A stretch of DNA of 64,000 nucleotides from Halichondria panicea (Eukaryota; Porifera; Demospongiae; Suberitida; Halichondriidae), in NCBI RefSeq assembly GCF_963675165.1, contig NC_087380.1:5092071-5156070 (forward strand), given 5' to 3'. Below are positions 3,001-60,683 of this stretch, piece by piece. Every line of letters starts with the position of its first letter. Within the stretch, counting starts at the first letter, position 1. The notes under the pieces were generated by a model. It did not search any database. It was not told the origin of the DNA and saw only the letters and a program-made list of their open reading frames with translations. The position numbers were made by a program, and so were the translations under genes.

Positions 3001-6000
3001 AAACATGTAGGCTTTGAAATTCGGCGTGGAGTCTTTGCAGGTCCTGAAGGACGTCGGTGAACCAGCCTGAGAAACATTCAGGAGTGGCTAATCTGGAGCC
3101 CGGGCGGTTGCACTTAATTCTAGCTTTCTTGTCGACCATTAATACATCTTTATATACCTAACTGGATAAATAGATCCTTTCTTATGTGATGATTATTAGG
3201 AAATCCAACTTTAGATGTGGACTACCACATTTGTTTGTTATTATTGATTACTGTCCTGTGAGATGGGATTCTGCTGAGATCAGGTGAATCTCAATGGGTG
3301 TCCTTGCTGCGTGTCCCACTGACGATCTTGCACCTCTGATTGCTTGAATGACTGAGCGTAGAAGGGAGAAGGTTAGACGATATCTTAACCAGCACAGAGT
3401 TTTATTGTAGGTGATGTCCCATTGCTGGGCGAGTAGTGAGCTCAGGCATTTGTAGAAAAGTGATGCTTCTACGCCCAAGCCTCCTGTAACTGATAAGACT
3501 AACGGTGTGAAGGAGGACTGTTCAACTTCCGAATTCTTTGCTGGTATATATGCCCGTTTCTTTTCCAGTTCGTATTTTCTGCTTGTGGTTGGTTTCTGTT
3601 GGAGGGGGCGAGCGGGTTGAATACTCTCACATCAAAGTATGTTTTTTGAAATCTGCCCCCCCCCAAACACTATTGGCCGATATATCCAATCGTGCGTTTT
3701 CTTGACTGTTCGCTGAGGCGCCGTTGAGTTGGTCCGCACTCACAGGTTGTAGGTTGGGCTCCACACACACTTCACTGCATACTTCCGTGAGAAGGGATGC
3801 TGTGGTATTTTTTATTTCGTTGTGCCTTAGCGTAGGAAACCCTCCTTTGGCACAGGAGAGGGTGTGCTCCACATTGAAGTTTTTGCCACAGTCGCATTTT
3901 GAGGGCAAGCGAGTTGGGGTCCAGCCATGGCGTAGTGCCAGGGCGTCTTGGAAGGCCGACTTGTGCAGTGTGAATCCGTGTTCCGATAGTGGGAGAACCG
4001 TGAGCCAAGTGGAGGCTCCTTTCGTCTTGGATAGCTCCACTGCCTTCTGGAGCCAGCCTGGTAGCTGTTGACGTATAGAGGCTGCTTCTTCTTCTTGTCT
4101 ATTCCTGTTGTCCTTACTAGTAATTACACATGCAATAGTAATTACACATGCAAAAGTATACGGTGTACTATGCAGTCTAGAGAGTAGAGATTACCACACA
4201 TTTGTGAGTATATATAGTTATATCAGTGGTGGATCCAGGAAAAAGGAAAGGGGGGTTATATATATGTGCGCTCAATTTTTGGGGGGTTACGCTCACTTCC
4301 GGTTATACGGTGCAGTAAGACTAGGGAAAATCTCATTCTCAGCCAGGGGAAGTCCCATAATAGGCTTGCATACAGTTAGCTAGCTGCTACAAACAGTCAA
4401 CTAACTAGCCTAGGATAACCATTGACTTTAAACACTCTTTTGGCAGTTGATACATCAAAACAACAGGTACAGTCATTGAATCAAATTACAACAGCTACAA
4501 AAAGCTAGCTGGTAGCCACAATAGACTGAAGGGGGGATCCGTGGTACCCTGGGATCTCCCCCTGGATCTGCCACTGTATATACTATTTTAAATAATACCA
4601 TGATACCATTATGTAAGGTGAATAAATAAGCTACAACATATCCATTTCCATGGCAACAAAAGGTGGTGGGTTAACAGAACAGCAAAAAATTGTTATAGTG
4701 GGTAATCGGGTAGGTGCATGGAGAAAAGACCAACGGTTTTCGTCTGTCTATAATTATACAGTTTGGCTATCTTATGAAGATTCAATGCTTACATATCTAC
4801 ACGTTCTCCGCAATGCTCAATTTTTTTATGTTTTTTCCCCGGTTAGGTGAATATCTAACGGCTATAAGGTCCAAACTAAACAGAGTGAAATTGTCTAACA
4901 ATATATAAATTGTCTAACAATTTAAAAACTTATCCAGAAATACTTCACTTACTTACTTGATATTGTAGAATTACCTCGTTTGTGACGTCACGTCCAAAAA
5001 CCGAAGTGTGTGTGTGTGTGTGTGTGTGTGCATGTGTGACTTGCTATAAAGAATGAACGTGTGGGATTTTTGACGTTAAAAATTTTCAAAACGTCACTAT
5101 TCAAGATGGCTGCTCACAGCGAAGTAAGTAGCGCTTTTGGCGCAAAATTAAAAAAGATCGGCGCAATCCACAGCCTTAATAGAGCTAGTGTTTTTACACT
5201 GCTGGCTGAGATTAATTTGTCATTTTAGCAACACTTCCTAGAAACCGCACATGCTGATTGCGCAGTTGCACAATGACTCAGTGATACACAAACCACAGAC
5301 CACACTTTACTACATGTATTCTAAACCCAACCGCAGCCGACTATATACGGGCCTCAAGTATGTGCAGTAGGGAGTTTCTCTGGGGAATCCCCAGCTACTG
5401 ATGAACACATGAAAAAAGGAGGTATATAATTATACCTATCGATGAATTTCAAGAGGCTGTGGAATAATGGCTGCTAGTTCTGTGTTTGGTAAGATCTCTG
5501 TCTATACAGCTATAGATCCCCATAGTTCTGCTTTCTCTATAGAAGGCTCCCTGCTCTATATACAAAGTTTGCTATACTATACGTAGCTAGATCTAGATTT
5601 ATTGTATGTATTGGGTCTCACTTTTAATTTAGCAGGTGGAAAGTCATTTCTTTTTGCTGAGTTTCATTTTCTTTTGGCACAACACCTGGTGCAATGGGGT
5701 ATTCAGCCTAGGAAACTGTGCAGACTGCTTGATAGGCATCTATCACGGAATGGTTCAGGCAAGCATTATTCTCTGAGTGAATCATTGCAGAAAAATGCAC
5801 GAAAGAAGACACAAGACCCAGTGCTACTAAACGCTTATTTTGTCAACCGCTGGGCACATCAGATTCAGCCAGACAGTGAAAAATTGGCTCAGGTATTCAA
5901 TTCTTGTGATGCAAAAATTCGATCAAACATCTCAGAATTATGGTAAGTTGTTATCATGCAGGATGTCATTGAGCATCACAATGCATTTCATATGCATGCA

Positions 6001-9000
6001 TGATGTCTATTTGCATGCAGTGAAGCGAACAGTTTGGATTTTAGCCGGACTAAGTGTGATGAAATACCTAAGCTGTAAGTACATACTTTATATACTATAA
6101 TAACGTAGGCTTGTTTTTCACTGCATGGTACAAGTACAATGTATATCATAATACATTCTTTTTTTAGACAGATCTCCAAAGAAGGGAAACTATTTTCCTT
6201 TTGTGCCAAACATGATATGACGGATTATTCTCAGTATCGTCAATACGGAATCAAACAAAACCGACCTTGGTGTTTCTACTATAAATTTAAGGGTAAACAT
6301 TTTTATCTTTTATCGTGATGTGATGTAGATGCACAATTCGAATCACTCATAATTAACTCGAGATGCGTAGGCGGCCACGGGTTATAGCATTCCGTTGGTT
6401 TGTTTGCTTGTCTGTCTGTTTGTCTGTGTATTCTGAGTCTGCTCACCTGGGCCGTAAGCGCTGCGTTCACAGCATGAATATATAGCTTTTCTTTTAGCTG
6501 GGAACCTAGCCTCAACAAAACAGGTAGAGGTACCTGAGCTTGTAAATTTTTTTTAATAGTGGAAGATTTTGACAGCAAAGCTTTGATCGTTGTCGAATAA
6601 AAACGAGCAATTGCATATTGGCTATAGCTAGCTAGGTACGTAGCTAAATATGCGGCTTTAGTTTGAGCATAGATGTTTTGAGGCACACCATTACACATGC
6701 ACACAGCCATGTGGAGCCCTATTTATTTTCATGGGAAGACTCTTCTTAGCTAACTATACTGTGAGCCTACTCCAGTCCCAGTGCAAAGCCAGATACATTA
6801 CTTGTAACACTCCAGGATTCTTTGCTGATTCTACTGTGATCTTACACTATATGCCATGTACAGCCGTTTTCAAAGCCTTGTCCTGATACCGTTCTAATTT
6901 GCCACATAGTTAGTTTCATTCCCCCTGTTAGTTGCTACTATCGGTTTCCATGTTTATAGATACTTCAAAATCAAGTAAAAAGACAAAGGCTAAGTCTACT
7001 TCTGTTTCCATGTTGATGGCTGCACCTGATGTTCACACCAGTCAAAGACTATCCATTGCTAGGTTTGCTAGAAAAGTTCTCCGGAAGTTTACACTTAATT
7101 TCAGGATAACACAACAAGGTGTAATGATACGTATATATTTTAATAAATTTGATAAAGTTTATGCTGCTTTAGAAAATGCTGTTGAACGTTTTGCCATACG
7201 GTTGTTGGATAAAGCAAATATTGTGGCTTTCAATGATGGCAGAGAAACTGTTCTACTAAAAGATATTTGGTAAGAGCTCTTCATAATTATGAATGTGAAG
7301 CTATGTATGTCTTCAAGGCCTTAATTGTGAGCACACGCATATAATTATGTACGCACTAGTTTTGTTCAATGAAGTACTAATAATGGCAATGTGTCTACTC
7401 TGTATAATGTGGACCAACAATAAGTTGTATGGCATATGCATCATGTTACATATGTACAGCACAGTCATGTTTTTTACAGGGCTGCACTTCACGTAGAATC
7501 TAGCGACACCTTCGAGATTGTTGATTGTAACTCCTCAACCAAACAGAAAGACAGTGCAAAGTGTGGTGTGCCTGAAATCAATCACACATGTGACAGTGGC
7601 ACTGAGAGTTCAGGTGAGAGATTGAGCGAGGTATGTCTATAGTAATAATGAGACCAAATCTCAGTTGTGAGTCGAAAAGAGTTTGAAGAGTTGCCAAACA
7701 GGGATTGTGATGACTCAGGTAGATTATAATGGCTGTCGATGTACCACAATTATGATTCAAACTGAGTAAATCAGAGAGTTCTAGTGCTTGAGTTTTGTGG
7801 TTATCTATAACATGTACACTATATATCACATGTATTTATGTTTTGTATAGATGATGATATTGAAGAAACGTTTCGAAAAGTAAAGCCACCTATGATTGGT
7901 AAAGTACATGTACCATTCTATGCTGACAAAGCTAACCTGACTTCGTCCAGCAGTTGTGAGCAATTAGAGTGCAGTTTAAACGATTATATTAATTAATAAC
8001 TTATGTAGGCTCAAAAGTCAAACGGGGATGTGAGTTACCGAAACGGCTAAGAAAAAGAAAACGACGATTGGTAACCAGCTCAGACTGTGAAGGTATAACA
8101 GTTGGACATTTTTCTTTAATTAAAGACATAATTTTATAGGCTGTAATCTGACGAGTCCCAAACAACCTTGCATTGTTTATTTTGATTCTGTACAATTACG
8201 TATAAAACTGATAGATTTTCGTTTGTTCAGAAAGCGACGTGGATAGTGAAAATTCAGTTCCATCTACATATTCTATTGGCACATGTAGTTCTGATTATCA
8301 ATGCCATGTGAAGAAAAGAAGTAAGTTAGTGTAACCTTAATCAAGGGAAAACAAATTTGCCCTGTACTGTTATATTCAGGAAACAAGCAACCCCTCTCGA
8401 TAATTGAAAACAAAAATGTTGCTGCTGCACCTGTGCACAAAAGTCAAGGAGTATCCATTGCTACTAGGAAATTTCTCCAGAAGCCTAGACTTGATTTAAG
8501 GAGAATATATTCTTTTTTGCAAGGTGCATATAAGCGATAGTGTTTTACATAATTAAAAACTCGTATTCCAATCCAACAGAAGTTGTCAAACGTGTACTCT
8601 ATAAGGCAAATATTGTCACTGCCTGTGGACCTAGGTAAGAGCTCTTCAATGGCATATGAATGTGAAGCCTCGTCCCCAGGCCGAAAATTAGGCCTGCAGA
8701 CTGTTCTAAAATTCACTCTGCATGGTGTTTTATTCTTATTGTCATTCAAAAAGAATATATTTGGACTAGTTCTTAATGTGGTTGTGATGGACTAATCCAA
8801 TTGCAATTCCTATCCATATTAACTATCATTGAAAGATGTACGGCAACACACATATTCACTTTATAATCACAACAACATGCTTGTAAATAAACAAGGCCAA
8901 TTTTTCAGCTACATGTACATGTAAGTGTTTTGTTAGTGAATGGCCTGGAGATGAGGCTATAAAGGTACATGTAACAATTTTGTTTTACAGGGCTGTACCT

Positions 9001-12000
9001 AACGATTGCCCTCTCCACAACCAGACGGAAGTATGTAGCAAAAGTGGTGTGCTTGGAATTAATCATGATGTGGCAGATGGTGGCACCGAGAGCTCAGGTA
9101 AACTTATCATTAGAGTAACATTGTATGTGTATATACCATATATCTTCTTATTAGACACTTCAAATTATCCCAGACACTGTTCTGGGAAATTTCTAATAAT
9201 TCCGTTCTAATACACTCTAGTGCTTTAATTTTACATTAATTTTGTTCTAAATATCCGGGTAATACCTTGAAAGTTGAGATACATTCCAAGCACCGTAGCT
9301 TTATAGCTAGTTGCAGAGCTCAAGGATTAACTAGTTTTTAGTACAACTGTTGAGTCGCACACTGTATGCTACTAATCTTTAGCTAGCTCACATGCAGCTG
9401 CATGGCCTGTTCTATGATTATTCCAGGCATCAATAATCATAGTATGATGTCAGTCAGTGACTCGGAAATCACATTATTGATGTTGTGCATGATGCACTTG
9501 TGAAGTACTTGGTGTGACCTTGACTTTGAATCTTTGATATAGATGATGATATCGAAAAAGCATTTCGAAAAGTGAGGCCACCTATGATTGTTAAAATCTA
9601 TGCTGACAAAGTTAACCTGAAAAATTGTGAGTGCAGATTATAGCGTCAGTTTACCCCGAGTTTATAACTTAAGTAGGCTCAAAAGTCAAAGGAGGACATA
9701 AGTTACCGTCACGGCTAGGAAGAAGAAAACAACGATCCAGCTCAGACTACTGTGAAGGTATAACAGTTTGATTTTATACGCTTATAGACTGCGATCTGGC
9801 AATTTTCAAACAACCCTGCATTGTTTATTCCGATTGTGAAGGTATGTACAGCTGCGCACTGTATAGCTGGAAATTTTCGCGGGTGCATATTTTCGCTATT
9901 TGGCTCGAGAGCCCTCAGAAGAAATGTTCACGGTTCAATGCCAGGAAACCACCCTACCAAGAGCTTTGCATGTGAAATGCTGGTGCGTGGTAGTTTCTCC
10001 CAGTTTTAATTTTCGCACAACTGCTCTGCCCCCCTAGAAAAATGCGAAAGTTTGCACCTTACGAAAAATTCCCGCTATACAGTACGTAATTATGACTTCA
10101 TTTACTTAGACAGGCAAAAACGGGTTCCATCCACCTCTTCCTCACTGCTAAGAAAAGGGCGACGATTGGTATCTAGCTCAGATGATGAAGGTATATAATT
10201 ATAACATCCTGCCACATTTTTTTGCTTTTTGTGCACACGTTTCTCACATTCCTTACAGACTTTGATCTGACAAGTCCCAAACGACCCTTAATTGTTTATT
10301 CTGATTCCGAAGGTACATGTACTTATGTATGCACATACGTAACTGAGATTTTCGTTTATTCAGAAAGCAACATGGGCAACGAAAATTTAGTTCCATTTAT
10401 CTATTCTAGATCTGTCAATGAGAAGAAAATATGTAAGTTAGGAATTAGCTTCATTATCATAACCATAATTATTCATGGATAGCTTATATTCAGAAGCAAT
10501 AAATTAGTAATTTGAATAATAGGCACAACTGCTGAAAGATTTGACTGTTCCCTGGATATGATGGACACTTGCTAAGTGTGAACAATGAACTGTATTGTTA
10601 TACATGTACATAAATAATTATACACGTAGAAGCATTGCAAGTACTGAGTTATTTACTCTTGTATGTTGCACAAAGAGCACTATTTTTGCACACTAAATTG
10701 TTTCTTTAAGGTTACAGTAAACAGTTTGCTCATGAATATTCATGATTTTTTTTATAATGATTTTGTGAAACTATGAAAGAAGTTTGAAGGACATACATGA
10801 TAAATATATTGGTGTATCATTCTGTATGCAAACTATCCATCTTCAAAACATCTTTCAGTGGAAGCTCTGAGCAATCATCAAGTTTACTAGAAATAACATA
10901 AACTTTTAAACACTTCTAGCTCTGTGTTCTTGCTTTTATACATGTACAATGCTTCTTACCATTCTAGAGGGCGACTCGAAGCGTTTTTTCTTTCCAGGCC
11001 AAGAAACTCTCACAAAATAATAATATGTTAGACTAACTCCACTTAAAATGGCAGTACATGTTCATGTATAACGTCTCAAAACCAGAGTGTTGCAAATTAT
11101 GTAAAAAGCAGTAGTATCAATACCGTATAGTGGGTAATTTTCAATATTTTCGCAGATTTAAACCAAGCTTCAACCGCAAACACACATGTTCAATATAAAT
11201 TATGTCCGCTAAAATAATATGCGAAATTCACAAATTGCCAATTTGTGAAAAATGCCTATCGGCAACGAGCATGATATTTGCTTCTACGTGAATTATCGCA
11301 CCCACACATTATTATACTTCATGGCATACAGACGGTACATAGAGACTCCTGAGGCCTGCAACAGGTCAGAGCAGATGAATGCTAGAAGGTTGCATGTTTT
11401 CTTATTGTTCACTGATCAGTGACGTTGCACCCAAATCTTTTGGCATACTAAATTACAGTTACATCCATCTACGTACTACTGTGCATCATTTTTGGCCACA
11501 TTGTTAAGATGCTGAACTTTCTCTCATAGATACTCTATAAAACTATCATTTTCTAATCATTATTGGTTGTGATACATGTACATGTATATTTGCATATTGT
11601 ATAGCATCTTTTCGAGAACCATATAATTATTTCGCCAATTGCTCAAAAGAACGAACTTTATTTTTGATAGTCCCTTATTATCACTACTTGGAAGTATAAT
11701 GATTTCAAATTTTTTGAGATGCATAATTTTCAAGGTTCAAGTTAATCCGCCAAAATTATGCACCTCGAAAATTTGCCGTTATACGGTAATTATTTGTACC
11801 TTCCAGTCAATCCCTCAATATTCTTTGGAAAAACACGAACACTCAGTTCAGCATTCGCTAGAGGAGAGAAGAAAAGCATCTCTGTGTCAGTAGCCTGGGG
11901 ATAGTTGACCGCCAGTGCCCCCAGAGAACAAGAGGGGGAGAGTCGAAGCACATAGGACCCTCGACCTGTGAGGGGTGTGATGGGGTGACGGGTAATTGTA

Positions 12001-17234: not shown

Positions 17235-18986
17235 CTAGCAGTACAGTGCCTGTGATTGTTGTCCAGGCATATATCTACACATCACATAACACTCACAGAG
17301 ATGACGAAAATTACTCAATTCAGAGTTAACAAAATGATCAGCGTCTGTCATACTCAGGCACAGGTGTGTCAGAGATCGAGACTGAGAGAGGGCTTTAAAA
17401 ACTTCAGACTGAGCAGTGATTTCTGACAAACAATAGATGTACATTTTTTTCAAAGAAGAGTAACAGTCTGGGTCCGTGGGTAAAGTCAATTGCGGTAAAC
17501 TATCCTGTGATCTAATGGCCATATAAGTGAGAGACGGTAGATTTGGTAGGATATTGGTAAGATCGACTGTTCCGTTTGAGTTGGTTAGGATTCTTAAGTG
17601 CTGCACCCGTACCAGAGCTGGCAAAAGCATTTCAAAATCAAGTGGAAGGGGTTTGTAAACATTCTGACTATAGTCAATTTCAAGTGAAAACAAATTCATC
17701 CGTACTACACTAAGGTGAATACGAGAACGACTTTGCACGTCAAACGGGGGTAAGTGGGACACACGTTCACCGATAGTACTTGGAGGTGTAACACTTCTGT
17801 CAGGAACACACAAGCAATTCTTTAATGCCAAATAGCGAAGTTTCTTCATCACTGCTAGCACTTCCCAGAGAGAGGCCATACTTTCGACTTTGTCAATACC
17901 CTTGAGATTCAGAGCAACCAATCCTGAGCAATTTGAGCTAATGTCAGCCAATCCTTGTAGATTGAGAAGGACATTCTCACAACGACTAATATCAAAACAG
18001 ACCAGAATGGGACAAGACTCAGAGAGCAACGTAAGATCAGTAGAAGATAGCTCCTTTAATCCAGCCAAAGAGAGGTATTTGATGCTGGGGGGTAAAAATG
18101 AGACAGTGAGGCCGGGTGAAGGGATGCCTGATTTGTACACTATTGCACTGACAGGATCATTACTTGGAGATAGAACCAATGAATACGAGGCATGACAAGA
18201 TGAGCAAACTGATTTAGCAGGACATGTCACAATTTCGACGCTCGGATGTAACGACACCTTTAGGATTGGGTATTTATTTATCATATTTCCAGCAACTGGC
18301 GAACAATTGGAATAAATTGAAAGAAGAGCTGGGTGGTCACAACTTGTTAGTTGGCCAAGGACAACTTCAAAGGAAATGTATGAAACACTAAACTCCAGAT
18401 TTGGCGGCAAATAGTTATTCTCCCTCCAATGTTGAACAGCTAGTGGTACATAATGTGCGGCACGAAAATTAACTGTAGACGTTTCAGTAATGCGTACTAT
18501 TTGAAGGTGCTGTATTTTGGAGGCTGCACAAACGATCTGGTTAACTTCAAGCTTTTGCCTCACTGATACATTGACATAGTACAGAGACGGCAGTGCAGAG
18601 AGCAGTTTTTCCAGCATTGAGAGCGTTATAGGCATGCCAATCAGTGAGAGATATCGGACTTGTTTACAGCTGTGGATTTTGGGGATAAACTTAGAAAGAG
18701 GAAATTTTAGCGAGTTAGGATTATACGATACATAAATATTTTGAACATAGGAACAAGACAGTCCCAACAATAGCCTGAGAGCCTTGAAGTCTTCATCTCT
18801 TCTGCGGCAGTCTTTCCACACCAGGGAGTTCCAGGCACGAGGGTCGCTGAGGATGGAATAGAATGTGTCTCCGTATCTCTTGCAGGAGATACGGAGACAC
18901 AGTTTCTCATAACCAGTCAGAGTGTCAGTTATCTTGATCAGTACCTCTGTGGGGAGACTGAGCAGGTCTTGATCTTGAGGTTCCAT
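17235..18986 (-). CDS. F-box/leucine-rich-repeat protein, array copy 1
   Basis: A single-exon frame of 583 residues starts at MEPQDQDLLSLPTEVL. Residues about 10-58 form an F-box (LSLPTEVLIKI...CLRISCKR...WNSLVWKDC), the part that binds Skp1 in SCF ubiquitin ligases. The rest is a chain of LRR-like segments (YLSLIGMP, LQHLQIVRI, YLSLAGLKEL, LVALNLKGI, LRYLALKNC), expected to recognise substrates. ATG at 18986 is chosen because it is shared by copies 2 and 3; an upstream TTG would only add residues not shared by the other copies. Two features set this copy apart: a 12-nt insertion within the F-box (adding about four residues) that forms a perfect hairpin, and a 4-nt insertion near 17251 that truncates the tail that copies 2 and 3 keep. 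No orthologue was recognised. Confidence 0.8.
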   Translation of the reverse strand: MEPQDQDLLSLPTEVLIKITDTLTGYEKLCLRISCKRYGDTFYSILSDPRAWNSLVWKDCRRRDEDFKALRLLLGLSCSYVQNIYVSYNPNSLKFPLSKFIPKIHSCKQVRYLSLIGMPITLSMLEKLLSALPSLYYVNVSVRQKLEVNQIVCAASKIQHLQIVRITETSTVNFRAAHYVPLAVQHWRENNYLPPNLEFSVSYISFEVVLGQLTSCDHPALLSIYSNCSPVAGNMINKYPILKVSLHPSVEIVTCPAKSVCSSCHASYSLVLSPSNDPVSAIVYKSGIPSPGLTVSFLPPSIKYLSLAGLKELSSTDLTLLSESCPILVCFDISRCENVLLNLQGLADISSNCSGLVALNLKGIDKVESMASLWEVLAVMKKLRYLALKNCLCVPDRSVTPPSTIGERVSHLPPFDVQSRSRIHLSVVRMNLFSLEIDYSQNVYKPLPLDFEMLLPALVRVQHLRILTNSNGTVDLTNILPNLPSLTYMAIRSQDSLPQLTLPTDPDCYSSLKKMYIYCLSEITAQSEVFKALSQSRSLTHLCLSMTDADHFVNSELSNFRHLCECYVMCRYMPGQQSQALYC

Positions 18987-19048
18987 GATTAGTGATTCAC
19001 GGGATGCCAATTTTGTAAAAATTAATTGTTCCCCAAAATCGGGTTTTT

Positions 19049-19140
19049 TGGGGGACCAATTTTCGTAGGGAAAGAAGTTGAGTCACGTGCGAACAGACAA
19101 GAGTCTGTGCTGTTTTTTTGTCTAGTCAGCAGTTTAAAAA
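19049..19140. repeat. Half copy of the 62.5-63.1 kb inverted-repeat element
   Basis: The segment with CAATTTTCGTA, AAGAAGTTGAG and AGACAAGAGTCTGTGCTG matches the left terminal repeat of the element at 62511-63113 and sits at the same place relative to F-box 1 as that element does to F-box 4. The right half is missing here. Confidence 0.65.
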
Positions 19141-25806: not shown

Positions 25807-28800
25807 CTCCAAGACTCACACTTTCAAACCTAGTGTCTGCTCTGAAAAGTGTTGAAAACAGATGGAATGATTTGGGTGCTGATCTGCGATTCCCTGAAGC
25901 AGTATTGCAAAGTATCGAGAAGCAGAATTGCTCCTCACTAGAGAGATTAACAGCTGTTCTCAAGCATTTTCTCCAACTACATCCATTTGCTTCTTGGCGA
26001 AGGATCATTCGAGCTCTTGAAAGGCTGGAAGAGAATGGGATAGTTAAGCACATTAAAACTTATTCTGAGCACATTTTAGGTGAGTAAATTCCTTTAATAT
26101 AAATCATACTCACACAACAGTTAACGGTTGTTTTTCACTACAGACCCAAGTCTTACTGTTGAGAATGTTGCTAGAGTGATTGCAGCTACCACTGATGATT
26201 GGGCAGATGATGTATATACTTATCATCTGGCAGGAGAGCTTATGGTGCCAATCACTATACAAGATAGAATTAAGAAACAATACTCCTCTGTTAAAGATCA
26301 ACAAACTTCTCTAGCCAAGTACTGGGTGAGAATGCTTTTCAATGCTTCATGGTCTACTCTAGCTGGAGCATTGCATTTCCTGAAGGAAAAGGAAGCTCTT
26401 GCCATTTGTGTGAAGGATTACCTTGACATTGAGAATGGTTTGTGATGTATGTGTTGTCACGCTATTAAATCTCTCGTGTGTACAAGAGAGGCATCAATGA
26501 TTTTAATGCATGAGAACTGTATATGACGGAATGTGTTTATTCCTGCAGATGAAACCCTAACAATGGAAAATTTACTAGCCGCGTTTGAGGGTGTGACAAA
26601 ATGGGATGAAATTGGATATCGGCTAAGGGTACCTACAACCCAACAGAATGAGATTAGATCATCTTTTCAAACAGACGATGAGAAAAAAGAAGCTATTTTA
26701 AATCATTTTCTTCAACACAACCCATCTCCCACCTGGAGAGAAGCTGCATTAGCTTTGTATAGAATGAGGCACCATGATTTAGTCAAGACCCTATACGAGA
26801 AGAAATATCTTATTGGTATGCTTGCACTTTACACTAGATATAATTATATATACATTGGGTCAAAAAAATGCACAGTCTATAAATTTATTTATTGCAGCAC
26901 CGGAGGATCAAAGGCTACTGGACATATTCAATTATACAGTGAAGCAAAGAGGATACTTAAATCAGACTATAATGCAAGCAACGATACAAGGAAATGCCCG
27001 GTCTGGAAAGACGTCGTTAATCAAGGTTCTACAGGGGAAACATGCTTGCCCTGTTGAACCAAGTACTGCTGTAATGGAAGAATCAGCGCGTATAGAGCTA
27101 AGCCAGTCTACTGTGCTTGTTGAAGGTATTCTCTGGACTCCAATCGAAGATTTGCATGAAGAAGCTAACCTTGTTGTGCGTGAGGTGATGACTGCTGAGC
27201 AGCTTCAATCGAATAATGCCAATGAAGATGACGAAGACAATATTATCATTGCAGACACTATTGGAGAATCAGTTTATCCTGGAACAGTAACTTCTATGGT
27301 TGATTCAGAATTACCCACTAGGAATACAACCAGGTATATATATATATATATATAGACTTATTGATTAGCTCCTTAATTGTCTGTATATGGGATAACTATA
27401 TAGCACAAAATAATATTACTGAGTCAGGCAAGTTTACATTGAGTTCAATGTGAAATTTGTCAGCTAACTCACTCGTTACTAGTTATAGAGAAGTCTGAAA
27501 GTAGGAGTTTAGCTTGCCCAGTACTATAATTATATATTATAATTAGAACTATTAATATTTTGCAGTATACCTTGCCCCGACCATGCAGCCTACTTGTTTT
27601 GTGATGCTACAAGCTGATGAGAGTCATCAATAGTAGAATCTCTCTTAGCTCCAGACATTCAGTCTGTGTGACTAGTAGGAGCTCACAAACCTACTGGAAG
27701 TGCTTATAATCTCAAGGATAGCTTCAGTTGTGGACAGTATATAATTATAGTCTAGCAGTCAGAGTGGCACAGAGAGCCTTGCAGCTCTCTTCTCACTCTT
27801 GAAGCTACCAATAGCTAGCATTCTAGTGCCGGCAGAGCTAACTACTAAGTAGAGTAGCAACACTCCATGGACAAGTTTTGCTATGCACTCTTCTGAAAAG
27901 GCTGCAATTGCATTCCAAGTAAGCAAAACTAGGCATAACTCGAAAACGAAGTATTATTTTGCAAATCCTTGAATTAACAAGAAAACATATAGAAGCCTAT
28001 AATAGAAACTCTTACATGCAGTTTATTGATCCCTGAGCAGCTGTAGCAATCTACAGAGACACAAACACACTACCAAATACCTCGCTTGCGCATGCGCACC
28101 AAGCTGTAAGTGTGTGTCTGTGTAGACTGCTACAGCTGCTCAAGGATGAATCAAGTGCAAGTAAAAGTTTCTATAGGCTTCTAATCATGTTTTCTTGGAT
28201 TTTAATTCGTGGATTTGCAAAATAATGCTTCGTTCTCGAGTTATGCCTAGTTTTGCTTACTTGGAATGCCATTGCAGCCTTTTCAGAAGAGCACGTAGCC
28301 AAACTTGTTTACCGAGTGTTACTACTCTACTTAGTAGTTAGCTCTGCACTAGAATGCTAGCTATTGGTAGCTGCAAGAGTGAGAAGAGAGCTACAAGGCT
28401 CTGCTGATGGCAGCCATTAATTTTAGACTTGAACTTTTGGCATCTATCGTTTTTAACAACAATCATAGTCGATCATTATACCCACTCTTTGAGTTCGCAT
28501 GCAGTAAAATATTGCAAAAAATAAGCTATTAGTAGCTTTATGTTATGTAGCTTTGGCATCTCCACCGAGGCATCAGCACCTGCGGTGCTTTAATTATATA
28601 CAGTGAAACTTACAAAATTAAAAATTTGGCCATTATCCGTATAGGTGTCTTTAGTTATCATCCAGAACGCTTTGGAAAAAGAGGCTGACATTCTGTTTTA
28701 GTTTAAATCTGGATCTGAGCCTTGGGCTGCTGTTATATAATGGGTGGTTGCTCTTCAGAGTATAAAGAGTATAATGTTTTCATGCAAAATCATGTATAGT

Positions 28801-31800
28801 ATTAAGGACGATCCTTTTTCATTTTAGCACTATCAAAACCTTCAACAGTAGTCTCTTCACTGAAACATTTGAGCAAGGTCCAGATAATTCTTCAATATTG
28901 AATTTATTCAAACTTGCCATTAAGAAAGCAAAACTCGAAATGACAATGATTAAGGACCCATGGACTCTATACATTTCAGATATAGGTGGCCAGCTTGAAT
29001 TCCAAGAACTGGTGCCAGCACTAACAAATGGCCCTAGCCTTCATATTATAGTCATTGCTGCTCACTGGGGTCTCAACAACAAGTGTCCAATTGAGTACTT
29101 ACACAAAAATGGACAGTCTGCCGTATCATATAAAGCAAACTATACGGTAAAAGAAAATGTTCTGTTAACTCTGGCAACGATAATGTCTACAGGACAACAC
29201 AAGCAACTTCCTAAAGCAATGTTTGTCATTACGTTTAAAGATTTGGTTACTGTAGAGGAACTACTTGTAATGGATGAAGAGCTACAAAGAACTGTGAAAT
29301 GCACTGAAGCATACCGCTCTGGAGTGATTGAGTTTGCCACAGAATCACACTTGTGTCATACCATTAATAATTTAATTCCAGATACAGATGACATTGCATG
29401 TATCCGTAAGACTGTGGAAAGAATAGGAATGCGAAATGATGATTACCAAGTTCGAACTCCCTACACTTGGCTTTGCTTTAGTCTTGCTCTACGCCGTATA
29501 AAGAATAGAGTGCTGCACTATTCAACTTGTGTGGAAGCTGGAAAACAATGTGGGATTGAATCGATTGAAGAATTGAATGCTGCACTGAGATTCCTGCATT
29601 ACAACATTGGTGTAATTCGGTACTTCAGTGATGTTCCTGAATTATCAGACATTGTTATAAAAGATCCCCAGATGTTGTTTGACTGTGTTACAGAATTGGT
29701 TCTCAATACTTTCACTTTTGATCGTGTTAATTATTCTACTAAAGAAGATTTCGAGAAGAAAGGATTGTTTCCAGTTGAAATGGTTAGCAAAGTGTCTACC
29801 AATTCAGAGCTTTTTACAAACCAAAAATTGATCGCTTTTCTGATGTACCATCACATAATTGCACCATTGGAGAAAGATGGTGAAACCGTAAAATATTTTT
29901 TGCCTTGCTCTCTTGTTCATGCTGAAATTTTTGAAAATGATGCTTCCTTTAATGTACTCCCTCCAATGGTGATCATTTTTGATACTGGGTACACTCCACG
30001 CGGCATTTTTGGATTTTTAGTGAGTGATATTCTAACTGACAAGGGTCATGAGATAAAAATCGTGTTGGATGTAGATTGTATTTATCGTGACCAGCTAACA
30101 GTGTCTGTAGGTCCTTACGTAGACAAATTTTACTTCTCCCTCCATGCAACGTATATAAAGATTGATGTGCAGCCTTCGAAAATCGAACGAAAATTTCCCT
30201 TTGGAGAAATTTGCTGCTATGTTCGGAATCGTGTGGTTGAAGCATTGACTGACATTGTTAGCAAGTTGAATTACAATTGTAAAGCCACTCACTCTTTAGC
30301 ATTCCTCTGTCCTGACAAATGCCATGGAGAACAAGTTCATGCAGCAACCATATTGTTTTATCGGGGGGAGATGCAGGCTTTAAAGTGTATCATTAGCAAG
30401 AATGCAAAAGCACTCCCAAAAGGTCATGAAGTGTGGTTCAATGAGGTACATTTTCAGTTTAGTAAGCATTCTATGGTTTTGCATTGTATACACCGTATTA
30501 CTAGAATATTTTGCTGGTGAAAAACCTTTGCGAATGAGCTAAGTCAGCAGAAAAGTTGACCCTTTTGTGATCTAACTATTGCGTTCTGGCAAGGATCATG
30601 TGTATTTACTAGTACAAAATAGGTTTTGCGGATTTTAATGTTGCGAATTGATCAACCATCGTAAAGTTTACAAAATGTTTGATGCTCGCAAAACATTCTA
30701 GTAATACCGTAGAGTTTGTTGCACACACATTATTGAAGATAATGATAATTGAGAATCATTAAGTGTATTGTTCTACAGGATGTGTGTATTTCTACGAGTA
30801 GAAAAAGACCAGCTTCAGAAGTTGCTTTACGTAAGTTGTATTTATATGGGCTATATATAGTACACTCTGATCTAATGTGTATACTTTCTTCTAGCATGCT
30901 CCAAACGTGTTGAATATGACTACTCGGAATTACATTTATCTTCAACCAAGTACTGGGTGAGCTGTTTAACAATTCAACTATTATTAATGATTTTTTGTCT
31001 TGCTACAGGACGGCCACAAAAGTACCTCAGGTATACCATTACTATAATTTTAATTTTCGAAACCATGCATATAGAGCAGCAGTTGCTCTATATGCATGGT
31101 TCTGAGCATGTTCCTCACCTCAAAATGTGGTGTGCTAGTATGTATACTTGCACTATGTCGACGTCTGAAGCACTTTATATGGCTTTAGAATGATTTTTCC
31201 TATCATTATAGATCTAGGTCAAATTTGGTATTTGGAAACTGCATGTGTATAGCTGCTTATCCCTCTGTCTTCTCCTTCTCTACGTAATTATGTTATTATA
31301 CTATAGCTAGTATGAAGCAAGATTGTTCTCTCAGATTGTCTGACAGTTAGTCAGCTGCCTTTATTACGGGTCTGCATTTGGAGAGCCAGAGTGGAGTGGG
31401 AAAACATAGGTACTGCTCTACACATCGATTCATCTATATTGAAAGCAATTGGATTGAGGAACCATTACAAACCTGAGGAATGCTTCACTGAGGTCCTCTA
31501 CTACTGGCTATGTCAGGAGCCTCCACCTACCTTGAACGTCCTTAAGAAGTGTATGATGTCACTTTCTCTGAGAGAAAGTTGTCCTCGACTGGATGAAGAT
31601 TTGGAGAGAAATTTTAATCAGGTTTGTGTTACTTACGCAATTAACACTATACGTTTTCAGTGTATATATTTATCCTTCAGTTTGAGCTTTCATGCCCAGA
31701 CACTTCTGCGATGGATGAAAGTGAGTTCTTGTTTACATTACACTTACTTAATGTCACTAGACCTCTAATAAAAAGTTTACTTTTCCAATTGAGTACTGTT

Positions 31801-40016: not shown

Positions 40017-41891
40017 TTATGAGGAAGTCCGTTGAAAACGAAATAGTGATCTTACATCTTCCACTTGGTCAAGATATTGCATTTGCCTTAAATACATTTG
40101 TCTTGATGTTCGAACAGACTTCACTGATCCACATATTCCTTTCGCATCTAGCAGTGCCTGTGATTGTTGTCCAGGCATATATCTACACATCACATAACAC
40201 TCACAGAGATGACGAAAATTACTCAATTCAGAGTTAACAAAATGATCAGCATCTGTCATACTCAGGCACAGGTGTGTCAGAGATCGAGATTGAGAGAGTG
40301 CTTTAAAAACTTCTGACTGAGCAGTGAATTCTAAGCAAGGTATAACACTATAGATACAAATTTTTTTCAAAGAAGAGTAACACTCTGGGTCCGTGGGTAA
40401 AGTCAATTGCGGTAAACTACTCTGTGATCTAATGGCCATATAAGTGAGAGACGGTAGATTTGGTAGGATATTGGTAAGATCGACTGTTCCGCTTGAGTTG
40501 GTTAGGATTCTTAAGTGCTGCACCCGTACCAGAGCTGGCAAAAGCATTTCAAAATCAAGCGGAAGGGGTTTGTCCCGACTATAGTCAATTTCAAGTGAAA
40601 ACAAATTCATCCGTATTACACTAAGGCGAATACGAGAACGACTTTGCACGTCAAACGGGGGTAAGTGGGACACACGTTCACCGATAGTACTTGGAGGTGT
40701 AACACTTCTGTCAGGAACACACAAGCAATTTCTTAATGCCAAATGGCGAAGTTTCTTCATCACTGCTAGCACTTCCCAGAGAGAGGCCACACTTTCGACT
40801 TTGTGAATACGTTTGAGATTCAGAGCAGCCAATCCTGAGCAATTCGAGCTAATGTCAGCCAATCCTTGCAGATTGAGAAGGGCATTCTCACAACCACTCA
40901 TATCAAAACAGATCAGGTTGGGACAAGACTCAGAGAGCAACGTAAGATCAGTAGAAGATAGCTCCTTTAATCCAGCCAAAGAGAGGTATTTGATGCTGGG
41001 GGGTAAAAATGAGACAGTGAGGCCGGGTGAAGGGATGCTTGATTTGTACACTGTTGCGCTGACAGGATCATTACTTGGAGATAGAACCAATGAATACGAG
41101 GCACGACAAGATGAGCAAACTGATTTAGCAGGACATGTCACAATTTCGACGCTCGGATGTAATGACACCTTTAGGATTGGGTATTTATTTATCATATTTC
41201 CAGCAACTGGCGAACAATTGGAATAAATTGGAAGAAAAGCTGGGTGGTCACAACTTGTTAGTTGGCCAAGGACAACTTCAAAGGAAATGTATGAAACACT
41301 AAACTCCAGATTTGGCGGCAAATAGTCATTTTCCCTCCAATATTGAATAGCTAGTGGTACAATATGTGCGGTATGATCCTGAAAATTAACTGTAGACGTT
41401 TCAGTAATGCGTACTATTTGAAGGTGCTGTATCTTGGAGGCTGCACAAACGATCTGGTTAACTTCAAGCTTTTGCCCCACCGATACATTGACATAGTACA
41501 GAGACGGCAGTGCAGAGAGCAGTTTTTCCAGCATTGAGAGCGTTATAGGCATGCCAATCAGTGAGAGACATCGGACTTGTTTACAGCTGTGGATTTTGGG
41601 GATAAACTTAGAAAGAGGAAATTTTAGCGAGTTAGGATTATACGATACGTAAATATTTTGAACATAGGAACAAGACAGTCCCAACGATAGCCTGAGAGCC
41701 TTGAAGTCTTCATCTCTTCTGCGGCAGTCTTTCCACACCAGGGAGTTCCAGGCACGAGGGTCGCTGAGGATGAAATAGAATCTCTTGCAGGAGATACGGA
41801 GACACAGTTTCTCATAGCCAGTCAGAGTGTCAGTTATCTTGATCAGTACCTCTGTGGGGAGACTGAGCAGGTCTTGATCTTGAGGTTCCAT
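40017..41891 (-). CDS. F-box/leucine-rich-repeat protein, array copy 2
   Basis: A single-exon frame of 624 residues begins MEPQDQDLLSLPTEVL. The F-box occupies residues about 10-54 (without the four-residue insertion of copy 1) and LRR-like segments fill the rest. The tail GQQSQALLDAKGICGSVKS and SLFRFQRTSS is complete, unlike copy 1. The start codon lies 199 bp from the CWC27-like start at 42091 on the other strand, so the pair shares a promoter. It is highly similar to copies 1 and 3; small differences (HTAHIVPLAIQYW) are spread through the gene. An open frame of this length argues for selection or recent origin. An SCF adaptor role is inferred from the F-box. Confidence 0.82.
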   Translation of the reverse strand: MEPQDQDLLSLPTEVLIKITDTLTGYEKLCLRISCKRFYFILSDPRAWNSLVWKDCRRRDEDFKALRLSLGLSCSYVQNIYVSYNPNSLKFPLSKFIPKIHSCKQVRCLSLIGMPITLSMLEKLLSALPSLYYVNVSVGQKLEVNQIVCAASKIQHLQIVRITETSTVNFQDHTAHIVPLAIQYWRENDYLPPNLEFSVSYISFEVVLGQLTSCDHPAFLPIYSNCSPVAGNMINKYPILKVSLHPSVEIVTCPAKSVCSSCRASYSLVLSPSNDPVSATVYKSSIPSPGLTVSFLPPSIKYLSLAGLKELSSTDLTLLSESCPNLICFDMSGCENALLNLQGLADISSNCSGLAALNLKRIHKVESVASLWEVLAVMKKLRHLALRNCLCVPDRSVTPPSTIGERVSHLPPFDVQSRSRIRLSVIRMNLFSLEIDYSRDKPLPLDFEMLLPALVRVQHLRILTNSSGTVDLTNILPNLPSLTYMAIRSQSSLPQLTLPTDPECYSSLKKICIYSVIPCLEFTAQSEVFKALSQSRSLTHLCLSMTDADHFVNSELSNFRHLCECYVMCRYMPGQQSQALLDAKGICGSVKSVRTSRQMYLRQMQYLDQVEDVRSLFRFQRTSS

Positions 41892-42090
41892 GATCAGCCT
41901 TTGGTGTCGATCGGCGTTATTTTAGAGACAAATCCGCCCGGGAACAAAAACGTGTGTAGATTTATTGCATTATCGATGATCGATCATAACTTTGATGATC
42001 CTAGACGTACCTAGTACCTATAGCGCTATAGCATGAGCTAGATATCCATGATCCAGTACATGCAATAGAGAGAGAGATCAGCAGTGCAGT

Positions 42091-46061: not shown

Positions 46062-47930
46062 TCATTGAAAACGAAATAGTGATCTTACATCTTCCACTTG
46101 GTCAAGATATTGCATTTGCCTTAAATACATTTGTCTTGATGTTCGAACAGACTTCACTGATCCACATATTCCTTTCGCATCTAGCAGTGGCTGTGATTGT
46201 TGTCCAGGCATATATTTACATATCACATAACACTCACAGAGATGACGAAAATTACTCAATTCAGAGTTAACAAAATGATCAGCATCTGTCATACTCAGGC
46301 ACAGGTGTGTCAGAGATTGAGATTGAGAGAGGGCTTTAAAAACTTCTGACTGAGCAGTGATTTCTAAGCAAGGTATAACACAATAGATACAAATTTTTTT
46401 CAAAGAAGAGTAACACTCTGGGTCCGTGGGTAAAGTCAATTGCGGTAAACTATCCTGTGATCTAATGGCCATATAAGTGAGAGACGGAAGATTTGGTAGG
46501 ATATTGGTAAGATCGACTGTTCCGTTTGAGTTGGTTAGGATTCTTAAGTGCTGCACCCGTACCAGAGCTGGCAAAAGCATTTCAAAATCAAGCGGAAGGG
46601 GTTTGTGAACATTCCGACTATAGTCAATTTCAAGTGAAAACAAATTCATCCGTACTACACTAAGGCGAATACGAGAACGACTTTGCACGTCAAACGGGGG
46701 TAAGTGGGACACACGTTCACCGATAGTACTTGGAGGTGTAACACTTCTGTCAGGAACACACAAGCAATTCCTTAATGCCAAATGGCGAAGTTTCTTCATC
46801 ACTGCTAGCACTTCCCAGAGAGAGGCCACACTTTCGACTTTGTGAATACCTTTGAGATTCAGAGCAACCAATCCTGAGCAATTTGAGCTAATGTCAGCCA
46901 ATCCTTGCAGATTGAGAAGGGCATTCTCACAACCACTCATATCAAAACAGACCAGGTTGGGACAAGACTCAGAGAGCAACGTAAGATCAGTAGAAGATAG
47001 CTCCTTTAATCCAGCCAAAGAGAGGTATTTGATGCTGGGGGGTAAAAATGAGACAGTGAGGCCGGGTGAAGGGATGCCTGATTTGTACACTATTGCACTA
47101 ACAGGATCATTACTTGGAGATAGAACCAATGAACACGAGGCAGGACAAGATGAGCAAACTGATTTAGCAGGGCATGTCACAATTTCGACGCTCGGATGTA
47201 ATGACACCTTTAGGATTGGGTATTTATTTATCATATTTCCAGCAACTGGCGAACAATTGGAATAAATTGAAAGAAGAGCTGGGTGGTCACAACTTGTTAG
47301 TTGGCCAAGGACAACTTCAAAGGAAATGTATGAAACACTAAACTCCAGATTTGGCGGCAAATAGTTATTCTCCCTCCAATGTTGAATAGCTAGTGGTACA
47401 TTATATGCGGTACGATCCTGAAAATTAACTGTAGACGTTTCAGTAATGCGTACTATTTGAAGGTGCTGTATCTTGGAGGCTGCACAAACGATCTGGTTAA
47501 CTTCAAGCTTTTGCCCCACTGATACATTGACATAGTACAGAGAAGGCAGTGCAGAGAGCAGTTTTTCCAGCATTGAGAGCGTTATAGGCATGCCAATCAG
47601 TGAGAGATATCGGACTTGTTTACAGCTGTGGATTTTGGGGATAAACTTAGAAAGAGGAAATTTTAGCGAGTTAGGATTATACGATACGTAAATATTTTGA
47701 ACATAGGAACAAGACAGTCCCAACGATAGCCTGAGAGCCTTGAAGTCCTCATCTCTTCTGCGGCAGTCTTTCCACACCAGGGAGTTCCAGGCACGAGGGT
47801 CGCTGAGGATGAAATAGAATCTCTTGCAGGAGATACGGAGACACAGTTTCTCATAGCCAGTCAGAGTGTCAGTTATCTTGATCAGTACCTCTGTGGGGAG
47901 ACTGAGCAGGTCTTGATCTTGAGGTTCCAT
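46062..47930 (-). CDS. F-box/leucine-rich-repeat protein, array copy 3
   Basis: A single-exon frame of 622 residues starts at the ATG shared by all copies (MEPQDQDLLSLPTEVL); the longer frame that begins upstream uses TTG and is not supported. The F-box lies at residues about 10-54 and LRR-like segments follow to about 570. It ends SLFRFQ, four residues short of copy 2 because of a changed stop position. The CWC27-like start codon lies 125 bp away on the other strand. Sequence features VNFQDRTAYNVPLAIQHW and VICKYMPGQQSQPL distinguish it from copies 1 and 2; the latter motif recurs in pseudogene copy 4. Function is inferred as an SCF substrate adaptor. Confidence 0.82.
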   Translation of the reverse strand: MEPQDQDLLSLPTEVLIKITDTLTGYEKLCLRISCKRFYFILSDPRAWNSLVWKDCRRRDEDFKALRLSLGLSCSYVQNIYVSYNPNSLKFPLSKFIPKIHSCKQVRYLSLIGMPITLSMLEKLLSALPSLYYVNVSVGQKLEVNQIVCAASKIQHLQIVRITETSTVNFQDRTAYNVPLAIQHWRENNYLPPNLEFSVSYISFEVVLGQLTSCDHPALLSIYSNCSPVAGNMINKYPILKVSLHPSVEIVTCPAKSVCSSCPASCSLVLSPSNDPVSAIVYKSGIPSPGLTVSFLPPSIKYLSLAGLKELSSTDLTLLSESCPNLVCFDMSGCENALLNLQGLADISSNCSGLVALNLKGIHKVESVASLWEVLAVMKKLRHLALRNCLCVPDRSVTPPSTIGERVSHLPPFDVQSRSRIRLSVVRMNLFSLEIDYSRNVHKPLPLDFEMLLPALVRVQHLRILTNSNGTVDLTNILPNLPSLTYMAIRSQDSLPQLTLPTDPECYSSLKKICIYCVIPCLEITAQSEVFKALSQSQSLTHLCLSMTDADHFVNSELSNFRHLCECYVICKYMPGQQSQPLLDAKGICGSVKSVRTSRQMYLRQMQYLDQVEDVRSLFRFQ

Positions 47931-48055
47931 GATCAGCCTTTTAGTGTCGATCTGCGTTATTTTAGAGACAATTCGGTCCGGGAACAAGCTATAGCATGAG
48001 CTAGAGATCCATGATCCAGTACATGCAATAGAGAGAGAGAGATCAGCAGTGCAGT

Positions 48056-54173: not shown

Positions 54174-55331
54174 CTATCCAGATCCACTTTTCTTCATTGC
54201 TGTCTGGACTGCTCTTTCTGCAAGACCATTTGTTGATGGGTGGTATGGTGCAGATGTTAAGTGACAAATTCCATTGCTCTTGGTAAATGTCTTGAACTCG
54301 AAACTTGTAAATGGAGTGCCATTATCAGACACTATGACTTCGGGTATCCCGTGGGTAGAGAACACTTGTCTAAGTGCTGTAACTGTCTGAGTGGAGTTGG
54401 CAGACGACACAGGCATAACTTCTAACCATTTTGAGTAAGCATCCACAATTACGAGAAACATTTTCCCGATAAATGGTCCAGCGTAGTCGATGTGTAGTCT
54501 TGTCCATAGCCATTCCCAAGGATGTAAAGGGGCAATTGGAGGAGACTTTTGGTGAAGTGCACACATCTCGCACGTTTTTACCTTGTTTTCGATATCCGAA
54601 TCGATTCCTGGCCACCACACGACACTTTTTGCTAGTAACTTCATCTTTGTTATTCCTGGATGTCCATCGTGTAGAATTTCTAAGGTCCCTTCTTCTGGAC
54701 TAACAACTCTTTTTCCCCGCAGCATACAAGAATCCTGTACACTAAGACTTAATTCCTTGTGACATTTTTGGTAGGGTTGCAACTTCTCGTCATCTGAGAA
54801 TTTCCATCCTGACAGTATTAATCTTCTGACTTTAGACATTACTGGGTCGTGGTCTGTCCAGAAGCGAATTTTCTTGGAATCGACTGGTGCACTATGAAGA
54901 GTTTCCATTAAAAGAACTGTTTCTCCTGGCAGACTCGCTTCTTTCACTGTCTCTGGAAGAGGTAGGCGGCTTAGGACATCTGCGTTGCCATGTTGTTGTC
55001 CTGGTCGGTATTCGATCTTGTAATTGTACGCACTGATAATCAGAGCCCATCTCTTAATCCTGGCAGATGCCAACACCGGTATCGGCTTGTTTTCACTGAG
55101 TTGCAGTGGTTTGTGATCAGAGAGAATGATGAATTTTCGACCTTGTAGATACTGCTGGAACTTCTTTACTCCAAATACAATTGAGAGTGCTTCTTTGTCC
55201 AATTGGGCATATTTTCTTTCAGCCGGTGCCAATGATCTGCTGGCAAAAGCTATTGGCTTCTCACTTCCGTCATCCAGTCTGTGTGAAATAACTGCTCCTA
55301 ACCCATAAGGTGAGGCGTCACATGATAGCAA
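54174..55331 (-). pseudogene. Outer gypsy: RNase H and integrase
   Basis: The 385-residue frame opens in RNase H ([20 protein letters not shown]). The integrase follows: an H-H-C-C finger ([11 protein letters not shown] ... CEMCALH), a core with [14 protein letters not shown] and the [11 protein letters not shown] glutamate motif. The start is an artefact of the broken frame. The connection to RT upstream is disrupted between 55331 and 55558. Confidence 0.75.
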
Positions 55332-55557
55332 CAGGGTCTTTTCGGGGTTGTAGTGTGTGAGTACATGCGTAGACGTCAGTTGCTGCTTAGCTTCCTTGAA
55401 TGCTAACTCCTGTTCTTTTCCCTTCTGCAGGAGCTTGTTCAGTGGTGCCAGCTTACTGCATGGACAGATTGGATAAGAACTTTCGATAATAACTGATAGC
55501 GCCCAGAAAAGATCTCAATTGTTGGAGATTGTTGGGAGCTGGTGCTTCAAGTAGAGC

Positions 55558-56266: not shown

Positions 56267-56441
56267 TGTTGTGGTTTAGTTTACTTCCTGTTCTATGTGT
56301 ACTATTTATGTACGTGTGTTCTCAATGTTTTTAGTCTCTATTAAACTGTCAACTGTAAACCCGTACTGAGTTGGTAACTTAGCGGTGAGTCCAGACCTAG
56401 CTAAGTTACGACATAAATTGGCGACGAGGAGTTAGAACTCT

Positions 56442-60429: not shown

Positions 60430-60683
60430 TTATTGATTGGAAACTGGTATTTTATTGGTATTGTTTTGTCATTAGTTGGATGATTTTTGTCATTAGTTAA
60501 TTTTGTGAGTCCTCACTAAAGGAAGGAGGAATGTTGTGGTTTAGTTTACTTTCTGTTCTATGTGTACTATTTATGTACGTGTGTTCTCAATGTTTTTAGT
60601 CTCTATTAAACTGTCAACTGTAAACCCGTACTGAGTTGGTAACTTAGCGGTGAGTCCAGACCTAGCTAAGTTACGACAAAGTC

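What the first reader, a model, noticed from the sequence alone, without database searches (positions are those of the whole stretch)
5467..10495. Uncharacterised gene with a histone H3-like fold in a long multi-exon protein
Seen: exon 6960-7269 encodes a segment whose helix 2, loop 2 and helix 3 start (ALENAVERF, GRETV, KDI) follow the H3/CENP-A pattern closely, ahead of long C-terminal repeats. Known: canonical H3 genes are short and have a different tail, and CENP-T-type folds lack this loop. Inference: this is a divergent H3-fold protein, perhaps lineage-specific, with chromatin or kinetochore roles possible.
Basis: partly seen in the sequence, partly recalled or inferred. Interest (0 to 1): 0.82.

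Follow-up and report, generated by a model that had tools for sequence, protein, structure and literature searches.

The report
Histone H3 fold inside long protein
A single-copy gene in an unnamed, probably animal genome, separate from that genome's ordinary H3 and centromeric-type H3 genes, appears to carry a very divergent histone H3 fold in the middle of a much longer protein, which would make it an unusual chromatin protein if transcripts confirm the exons.

Summary
The H3-like segment is real. Read straight through, exon 6960-7269 matches Pfam Histone weakly (21.6 bits, cut-off 26.4). Leaving out an in-frame 39-nt GT..AG stretch, 7119-7157, gives 34.9 bits (E 2.1e-8) and a gapless 68-residue alignment to the genome's own H3, 19 identical; 0 of 1000 shuffles score as well. 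H3 is the nearest of six own-genome folds compared. The genome also holds ordinary H3 genes and a separate CENP-A-like gene, so this is an extra H3-derived gene. H3's tail and alpha-N are not recognisable. A tandem duplicate of the fold-plus-tail exons follows; its fold has decayed. My 20-exon model gives 640 residues. The N-terminal exon models, at low confidence, as a death-fold-like bundle, but a profile test did not support that. Splicing of 7119-7172 is open: signals favour a 54-nt intron, protein homology the 39-nt one. Whether exons 1-4 belong to the same gene is unproven. Function is inferred; nothing found points to the kinetochore.

The parts
5467..5488 (+). exon 1 (MAASSVF), candidate start
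   Evidence: ATG, GT donor, phase fits exon 2
5636..5942 (+). exon 2: six-helix bundle in the model, possibly death-fold-like
   Evidence: AF2 single sequence pLDDT 65, pTM 0.60; top Foldseek and VIA rows death domains; sequence profile not supportive
6021..6074 (+). exon 3
   Evidence: splice signals and phase
6168..6292 (+). exon 4 (no Pfam match)
   Evidence: splice signals and phase; Pfam
6960..7118 (+). exon 5: basic linker, H3 helix 1 and loop 1
   Evidence: Pfam Histone together with exon 6
7119..7157 (+). 39-nt in-frame GT..AG stretch; probable intron or 13-residue insertion at the start of H3 helix 2 (rival intron 7119-7172)
7158..7269 (+). exon 6: H3 helix 2, loop 2, start of helix 3
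   Evidence: Pfam Histone, PDB phmmer, own H3 alignment
7480..7613 (+). exon 7: end of helix 3 (AALHV) and start of tail
7851..7955 (+). exon 8: tail module, unit 1
   Evidence: direct repeat D3 with exon 14
8009..8092 (+). exon 9: basic tail module, unit 1
   Evidence: direct repeat D2 with exon 15
8231..8320 (+). exon 10: acidic tail module, unit 1
   Evidence: direct repeat D4 with exon 19
8380..8523 (+). exon 11: decayed copy of exon 5 (unit 2)
   Evidence: direct repeat D5; no Pfam match
8580..8634 (+). exon 12: decayed copy of exon 6, much of helix 2 and loop 2 lost
   Evidence: direct repeat D7
8991..9097 (+). exon 13: copy of exon 7
9543..9626 (+). exon 14: copy of exon 8
9677..9757 (+). 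exon 15: copy of exon 9
9788..9841 (+). exon 16: CIVYSDCE module
   Evidence: direct repeat D1
10110..10190 (+). exon 17: RLVSSSDDE module
   Evidence: direct repeat D6
10259..10312 (+). exon 18: LIVYSDSE module
   Evidence: direct repeat D1
10364..10432 (+). exon 19: copy of exon 10
   Evidence: direct repeat D4
10494..10499 (+). exon 20: stop codon completed at 10494-10495

Best explanation
The gene encodes an H3-derived histone fold built into a long protein. Shown by sequence: homology of exons 5-6 to histone H3 over helix 1, loop 1, helix 2, loop 2 and the start of helix 3; one copy found; no recognisable H3 N-terminal tail or alpha-N; tandem duplication of fold plus tail, the second fold decayed while reading frame was kept in the exon pairs compared. 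Inferred: the fold pairs with H4 or an H4-like partner and binds DNA through the retained H3 positions R69, R72, R83, R116 and T118, while the basic flanks, the tail modules and the N-terminal helical domain bring other proteins to that site. It would act as a chromatin adaptor anchored by a histone fold rather than as a bulk nucleosome histone, since H3-H3' interface positions are changed (H113 to N, L126 to A) and the H3 tail is missing. Residue roles are recalled from nucleosome structures, not tested. If the 13 residues of 7119-7157 are sometimes retained, they would disturb the start of helix 2, so splicing could switch the fold off.
For: Pfam Histone 34.9 bits, E 2.1e-8, over cut-off; PDB phmmer best rows CENP-A 1.8e-5 and H3 7.6e-5 over helix 1 to helix 3; z 13.1 against own H3 versus 7.6 own CENP-A-like, 3.6 H2B, 3.4 NF-YC-like, 2.9 H2A-like, 1.5 H4-like; gapless 68-residue map with 19 identities; a search of the own genome with the spliced fold returns this locus and two H3 genes (3 candidates, all scored). 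In 6 of 6 unit-1/unit-2 exon pairs compared the length difference is a multiple of three, so unit 2 seems to have stayed coding; dN/dS between units 0.60 for tail exons 7-9 against 0.98 for the fold exons.
Against: No RNA, no orthologue. The 39-nt intron needed for the full fold has an acceptor scoring -1.8, below all 25 reference acceptors (lowest 1.54; 18 of the 25 come from this same gene model) and lacks the pyrimidine at -3 that 25 of 25 have. A 54-nt intron 7119-7172 has an acceptable acceptor (2.72) but cuts five helix-2 residues and drops Pfam to 20.2 bits. dN/dS is 3.55 for exon 9 versus 15 alone (about one synonymous change). One repeat copy, 8133-8196 (D1), was left out of the model because I saw no donor in matching phase there, so not every duplicated module stayed usable. 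AF2 of the read-through exon was poor (pLDDT 48, pTM 0.22) and showed no histone fold. No DNA or H4 binding was tested.
Confidence: 0.6

Rival explanations
1. A decaying histone-fold gene: an H3 copy was captured into a fast-evolving gene, its fold is now being lost (intron or insertion in helix 2, second copy already degenerate), and the functional parts are the tail modules and the N-terminal domain.
For: The unit-2 fold has lost much of helix 2 and gives no Pfam match; fold exons dN/dS 0.98 between units, tail exons 7-9 0.60; splice signals favour a 54-nt intron that removes VYAAL.
Against: Unit 1 keeps R69, R72, F78, R83, R116, T118, K122 and D123; pentapeptides matching H3 as well as VYAAL occur at 0.0015 of 8415 AG sites of the window, so that stretch looks like retained H3 coding sequence.
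Confidence: 0.25
2. Two neighbouring genes rather than one: exons 1-4 (helical domain) end inside what I call intron 4, and the histone-fold gene starts at an ATG at 6950, 7010 or 7016.
For: Read on past exon 4, the frame stops at 6318; an AATAAA lies at 6596 in the 667-nt intron; in-frame ATG codons at the front of the exon 5 frame.
Against: Exon 4 donor and exon 5 acceptor share phase 1 with usual signals; exon 11, the copy of exon 5, is also an internal exon entered in phase 1. Phase agreement alone has about a one-in-three chance, and the DNA just upstream of exons 5 and 11 shows no homology (359 of 500 shuffles as good).
Confidence: 0.3
3. A second centromeric H3 or kinetochore histone-fold protein.
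For: PDB phmmer ranks CENP-A marginally above H3 (28.4 versus 26.4 bits).
Against: The genome has a separate CENP-A-like gene whose four best PDB rows are H3/CENP-A chimeras; this fold is nearer own H3 than own CENP-A-like (z 13.1 versus 7.6) and its loop 1 is two residues shorter than CENP-A's.
Confidence: 0.05

Closest known systems
Histone H3 (H3.3-type and canonical)
   Same: Gapless fold alignment once 39 nt are left out; 19 of 68 identities; helix 1, loop 1, helix 2, loop 2, helix 3 start
   Different: No recognisable H3 N-terminal tail or alpha-N; in my 640-residue model 197 residues before and 375 after the aligned fold; many exons; H3-H3' interface positions changed (roles recalled)
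CENP-A / CenH3
   Same: Divergent H3 fold; top PDB rows
   Different: Loop 1 two residues shorter than CENP-A's; the genome's own CENP-A-like gene is elsewhere (G000:C8:6786307)
NF-Y / archaeal histone family (Pfam CBFD_NFYB_HMF)
   Same: Second Pfam match, 25.4 bits, over its cut-off of 21.4
   Different: Lower score than Pfam Histone; z 3.4 against own NF-YC-like fold versus 13.1 for H3
Death-fold domains (DD/CARD), for exon 2 only
   Same: The ten best VIA-align rows are death domains or complexes holding them, Z 9.0-6.5
   Different: Model confidence low; no Pfam match; comparison with a profile of 20 own-genome death domains no better than shuffles

Membership tests
Histone H3 family | H3-type histone fold, nearest to H3 among histone-fold families | tested here: met
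   over Pfam's cut-off only for the reading without 7119-7157, below it for the other two readings
Histone H3 family | H3 N-terminal tail and alpha-N helix ahead of the fold | tested here: not met
   Alignment to own H3 starts at residue 63-64 and no RYRPGTVALREIRRYQK-like block precedes it; a weak KST-containing similarity upstream is possible (runner-up)
Histone H3 family | Incorporated into nucleosomes with H4 | not testable with these tools
   needs biochemistry
CENP-A / CenH3 | Longer loop 1 than H3 | tested here: not met
   Two residues shorter than CENP-A after KFT, a place inside exon 5, upstream of the doubtful intron; gapless with H3
CENP-A / CenH3 | Is the genome's centromeric H3 | tested here: inconclusive
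   A separate CENP-A-like gene exists; localisation untested
TAF / CENP-T type histone folds | Match to their Pfam models | tested here: inconclusive
   Only Histone and CBFD_NFYB_HMF among histone-fold models matched at E<=10; a missing match is not proof
Death-fold superfamily (exon 2) | Six-helix death fold | tested here: inconclusive
   for; (no positive control run) and Pfam do not support

The most novel reading that the evidence does not exclude
A protein that joins a death-fold oligomerisation domain to an H3-type histone fold in one chain, in a genome rich in death domains, with SUMO-binding-like LIVYSDSE modules in its tail: an adaptor that would assemble death-fold signalling complexes on chromatin, with retention of a 39-nt intron switching the histone fold on or off.
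Probability: 0.12. Interest if true: 0.85.

Novelty: new variant of a known kind. Interest (0 to 1): 0.5.

Why it matters
Animal H3-family proteins are, as far as I recall, nearly all short. An H3-derived fold inside a long, multi-exon protein, beside intact H3 and CENP-A-like genes, would show that the H3 fold was reused as a chromatin-anchoring module. It also shows how a mini-intron or small insertion can hide a histone fold from domain scans: the genome-wide Pfam Histone search did not list this locus among its 24 places.

Tried and rejected
The 39-nt removal as uniquely best: of 34 in-frame, stop-free GT..AG removals of 25-150 nt in the exon it scores highest against own H3 (87; read-through 69), but an unrelated 30-nt removal at 7012-7041 scores 86, and an unrestricted 39-nt removal starting at 7124 scores 92, so score alone does not prove the intron. 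Homology between 7119-7157 and intron 8524-8579: not significant (238 of 500 shuffles as good). Exon 2 as a death domain by sequence: not shown (hhalign probability 0.59, against 0.12-2.69 for 8 shuffles; no leave-one-out positive control was run, so the negative is weak). A weak hit of the N-terminal protein at C17 (20.7 bits, two stops inside) was looked at only as DNA and dropped as probable chance. Viral origin: a viral-contig scan with H3 and one with a three-row H3 alignment found the same single H3-like locus, L016; the N-terminal part plus fold found nothing there; the introns also speak against it.

Papers: PMC3412847, PMC4432959, PMC2939574 and PMC12909245, passages only; all others search listings with starts of abstracts only. 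No paper on an H3 fold in a long multi-domain animal protein was recognised in the listings; the library holds open-licence papers only.
Full report
Observation. The ORF 6932-7273 and the quoted motifs are present. Read through, the exon gives Pfam Histone 21.6 bits alone and 22.8 with exon 7 added, both under the 26.4-bit cut-off. Without 7119-7157 it gives 34.9 bits, E 2.1e-8, and matches CENP-A and H3 chains of the PDB from helix 1 to helix 3 (best E 1.8e-5 and 7.6e-5); for the read-through the best row was 0.071 and covered only the second half. Against the genome's own H3 the alignment is gapless, 68 columns, 19 identities, z 13.1 with 0 of 1000 shuffles as good; the other own-genome folds score lower: CENP-A-like 7.6 (0 of 1000), H2B 3.6 (7), NF-YC-like 3.4 (12), H2A-like 2.9 (19), H4-like 1.5 (100). 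The family labels of these comparison genes are mine, from their sequence; for the CENP-A-like gene the best four PDB rows are H3/CENP-A chimeras at 129.1 to 123.7 bits, against 118.4 for the best plain H3.

Genome context. The window lies at G000:C4:5092071-5156070 of a 131-Mb assembly in 39 contigs. A Pfam Histone search gave 24 places, among them H3 genes (L002, L003, L005) and a CENP-A-like gene (L004), but not this locus. The fold and the N-terminal part were found once; one search lists, besides this locus, two H3 genes at E 6.5e-4 and 8.3e-4, besides this locus, one weak place with stops. Such searches score only the best candidates, so a very divergent second copy could be missed.

Gene structure. 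A model of 20 exons has matching phases and GT..AG signals and codes for 640 residues; the stretch aligned to H3 is residues 198-265. From 8380 on, the exons are in the main a tandem copy of exons 5-10. In the 6 pairs compared (5/11, 6/12, 7/13, 8/14, 9/15, 10/19) every length difference is a multiple of three. Modules 16 and 18 have a unit-1 counterpart at 8133-8196 (D1) that I left out because I saw no donor in matching phase; exon 17 has its likeness only in the end of exon 9 (D6). The second fold has lost much of helix 2 and loop 2 and no longer resembles H3 (822 of 1000 shuffles as good), though it clearly resembles the first fold (0 of 2000). dN/dS between units is 0.98 for the fold exons and 0.60 for tail exons 7-9 (0.28, 0.44 and 3.55 taken singly); these are small samples.

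The stretch 7119-7172. Three readings remain. Read-through adds 13 residues at the start of helix 2. A 39-nt intron restores exactly H3's length; introns that short exist in a demosponge (shortest of 312 ribosomal-protein-gene introns of Amphimedon 37 bp, median 68; PMC3412847, passages), and intron retention is reported as pervasive among its alternatively spliced transcripts (PMC4432959, passages). Its donor scores 6.81, within the reference range, but its acceptor is worse than all 25 reference sites, 18 of them from this gene model and 7 from myosin genes. A 54-nt intron to 7172 has a usable acceptor (2.72), a length common here (five of the eight myosin introns measured are 51-57 nt), and ends two bases before the intron position Q93|E94 of the genome's own H3.3-type gene, but it removes VYAAL. 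Only 0.15% of 8415 AG sites of the window, both strands, are preceded by a pentapeptide that matches H3 as well, so VYAAL is more likely retained H3 coding sequence than intron. My own weighing, not a computation: 39-nt reading 0.45, 54-nt 0.3, read-through 0.25.

N-terminal part. Exon 2 has no Pfam match and no PDB sequence match at E 10. Its single-sequence AF2 model (pLDDT 65; the other four models 44-49) has death domains as its six best Foldseek rows, none significant (best E 0.77), and as its ten best VIA-align rows (Z 9.0-6.5), a range that the tool warns may mean only a common helical arrangement. A profile of 20 death domains from the same genome does not recognise the sequence (no positive control run). 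The genome is rich in death domains (150 matches from 503 candidates, of which 150 were scored). One of them lies in the window at 25818-26063, and frames nearby give sub-cut-off matches to Death (15.7 bits) and COR-A (33 bits). The death-fold reading stays a lead.

Mechanism. Retained positions R69, R72, R83, R116 and T118 are those that, from recalled nucleosome structures, touch DNA, and R116 with D123 is the usual loop-2 pair; H113 and L126, recalled as H3-H3' interface positions, are changed. I infer a DNA-binding H3-type fold that pairs with an H4-like partner and serves as a chromatin anchor for the rest of the protein. The tail holds two modules, CIVYSDCE and LIVYSDSE, that resemble SUMO-interaction motifs (pattern recalled). 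None of this was tested biochemically.

Verdict. A real, divergent, H3-derived histone fold, outside the ordinary H3 and CENP-A-like genes of this genome, in a long multi-exon gene whose exact splicing and 5' extent are open. It works, if it works, like an H3 fold; it is not a conventional histone H3 (no recognisable tail or alpha-N) and not CENP-A by the features tested.

Noticed in passing
window 25818-30520: A death domain at 25818-26063 (36.0 bits; an equally scoring place at G000:C4:5242638), followed by frames with sub-cut-off Pfam matches to Death (26527-27057) and COR-A (28775-30520), looking like a death-domain/Roc-COR protein.
   Followed up: partly
window 17235-19082, 40017-41921, 46062-48071 (minus strand): Three very similar long ORFs; Pfam run on one of the three gave only sub-cut-off F-box-like and leucine-rich-repeat matches.
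   Followed up: partly
window 54174-61545: Gag-pol-like frames of Ty3/Gypsy-type retrotransposons on both strands (label from recall).
   Followed up: no
L016 (IMGVR_UViG_3300013005_002754): A viral-contig H3-like protein, 43% identical to own H3 in its best segment, with extra residues around loop 1.
   Followed up: no
L008 (G000:C11:2229200-2230400): An H4-like frame in which a shortened H4-like copy precedes a second one in the same 298-residue open frame.
   Followed up: no
L005 (G000:C17:107300-108900): An H3 gene with an 88-nt intron between Q93 and E94, the only intron-bearing one of the three H3 genes read here.
   Followed up: partly
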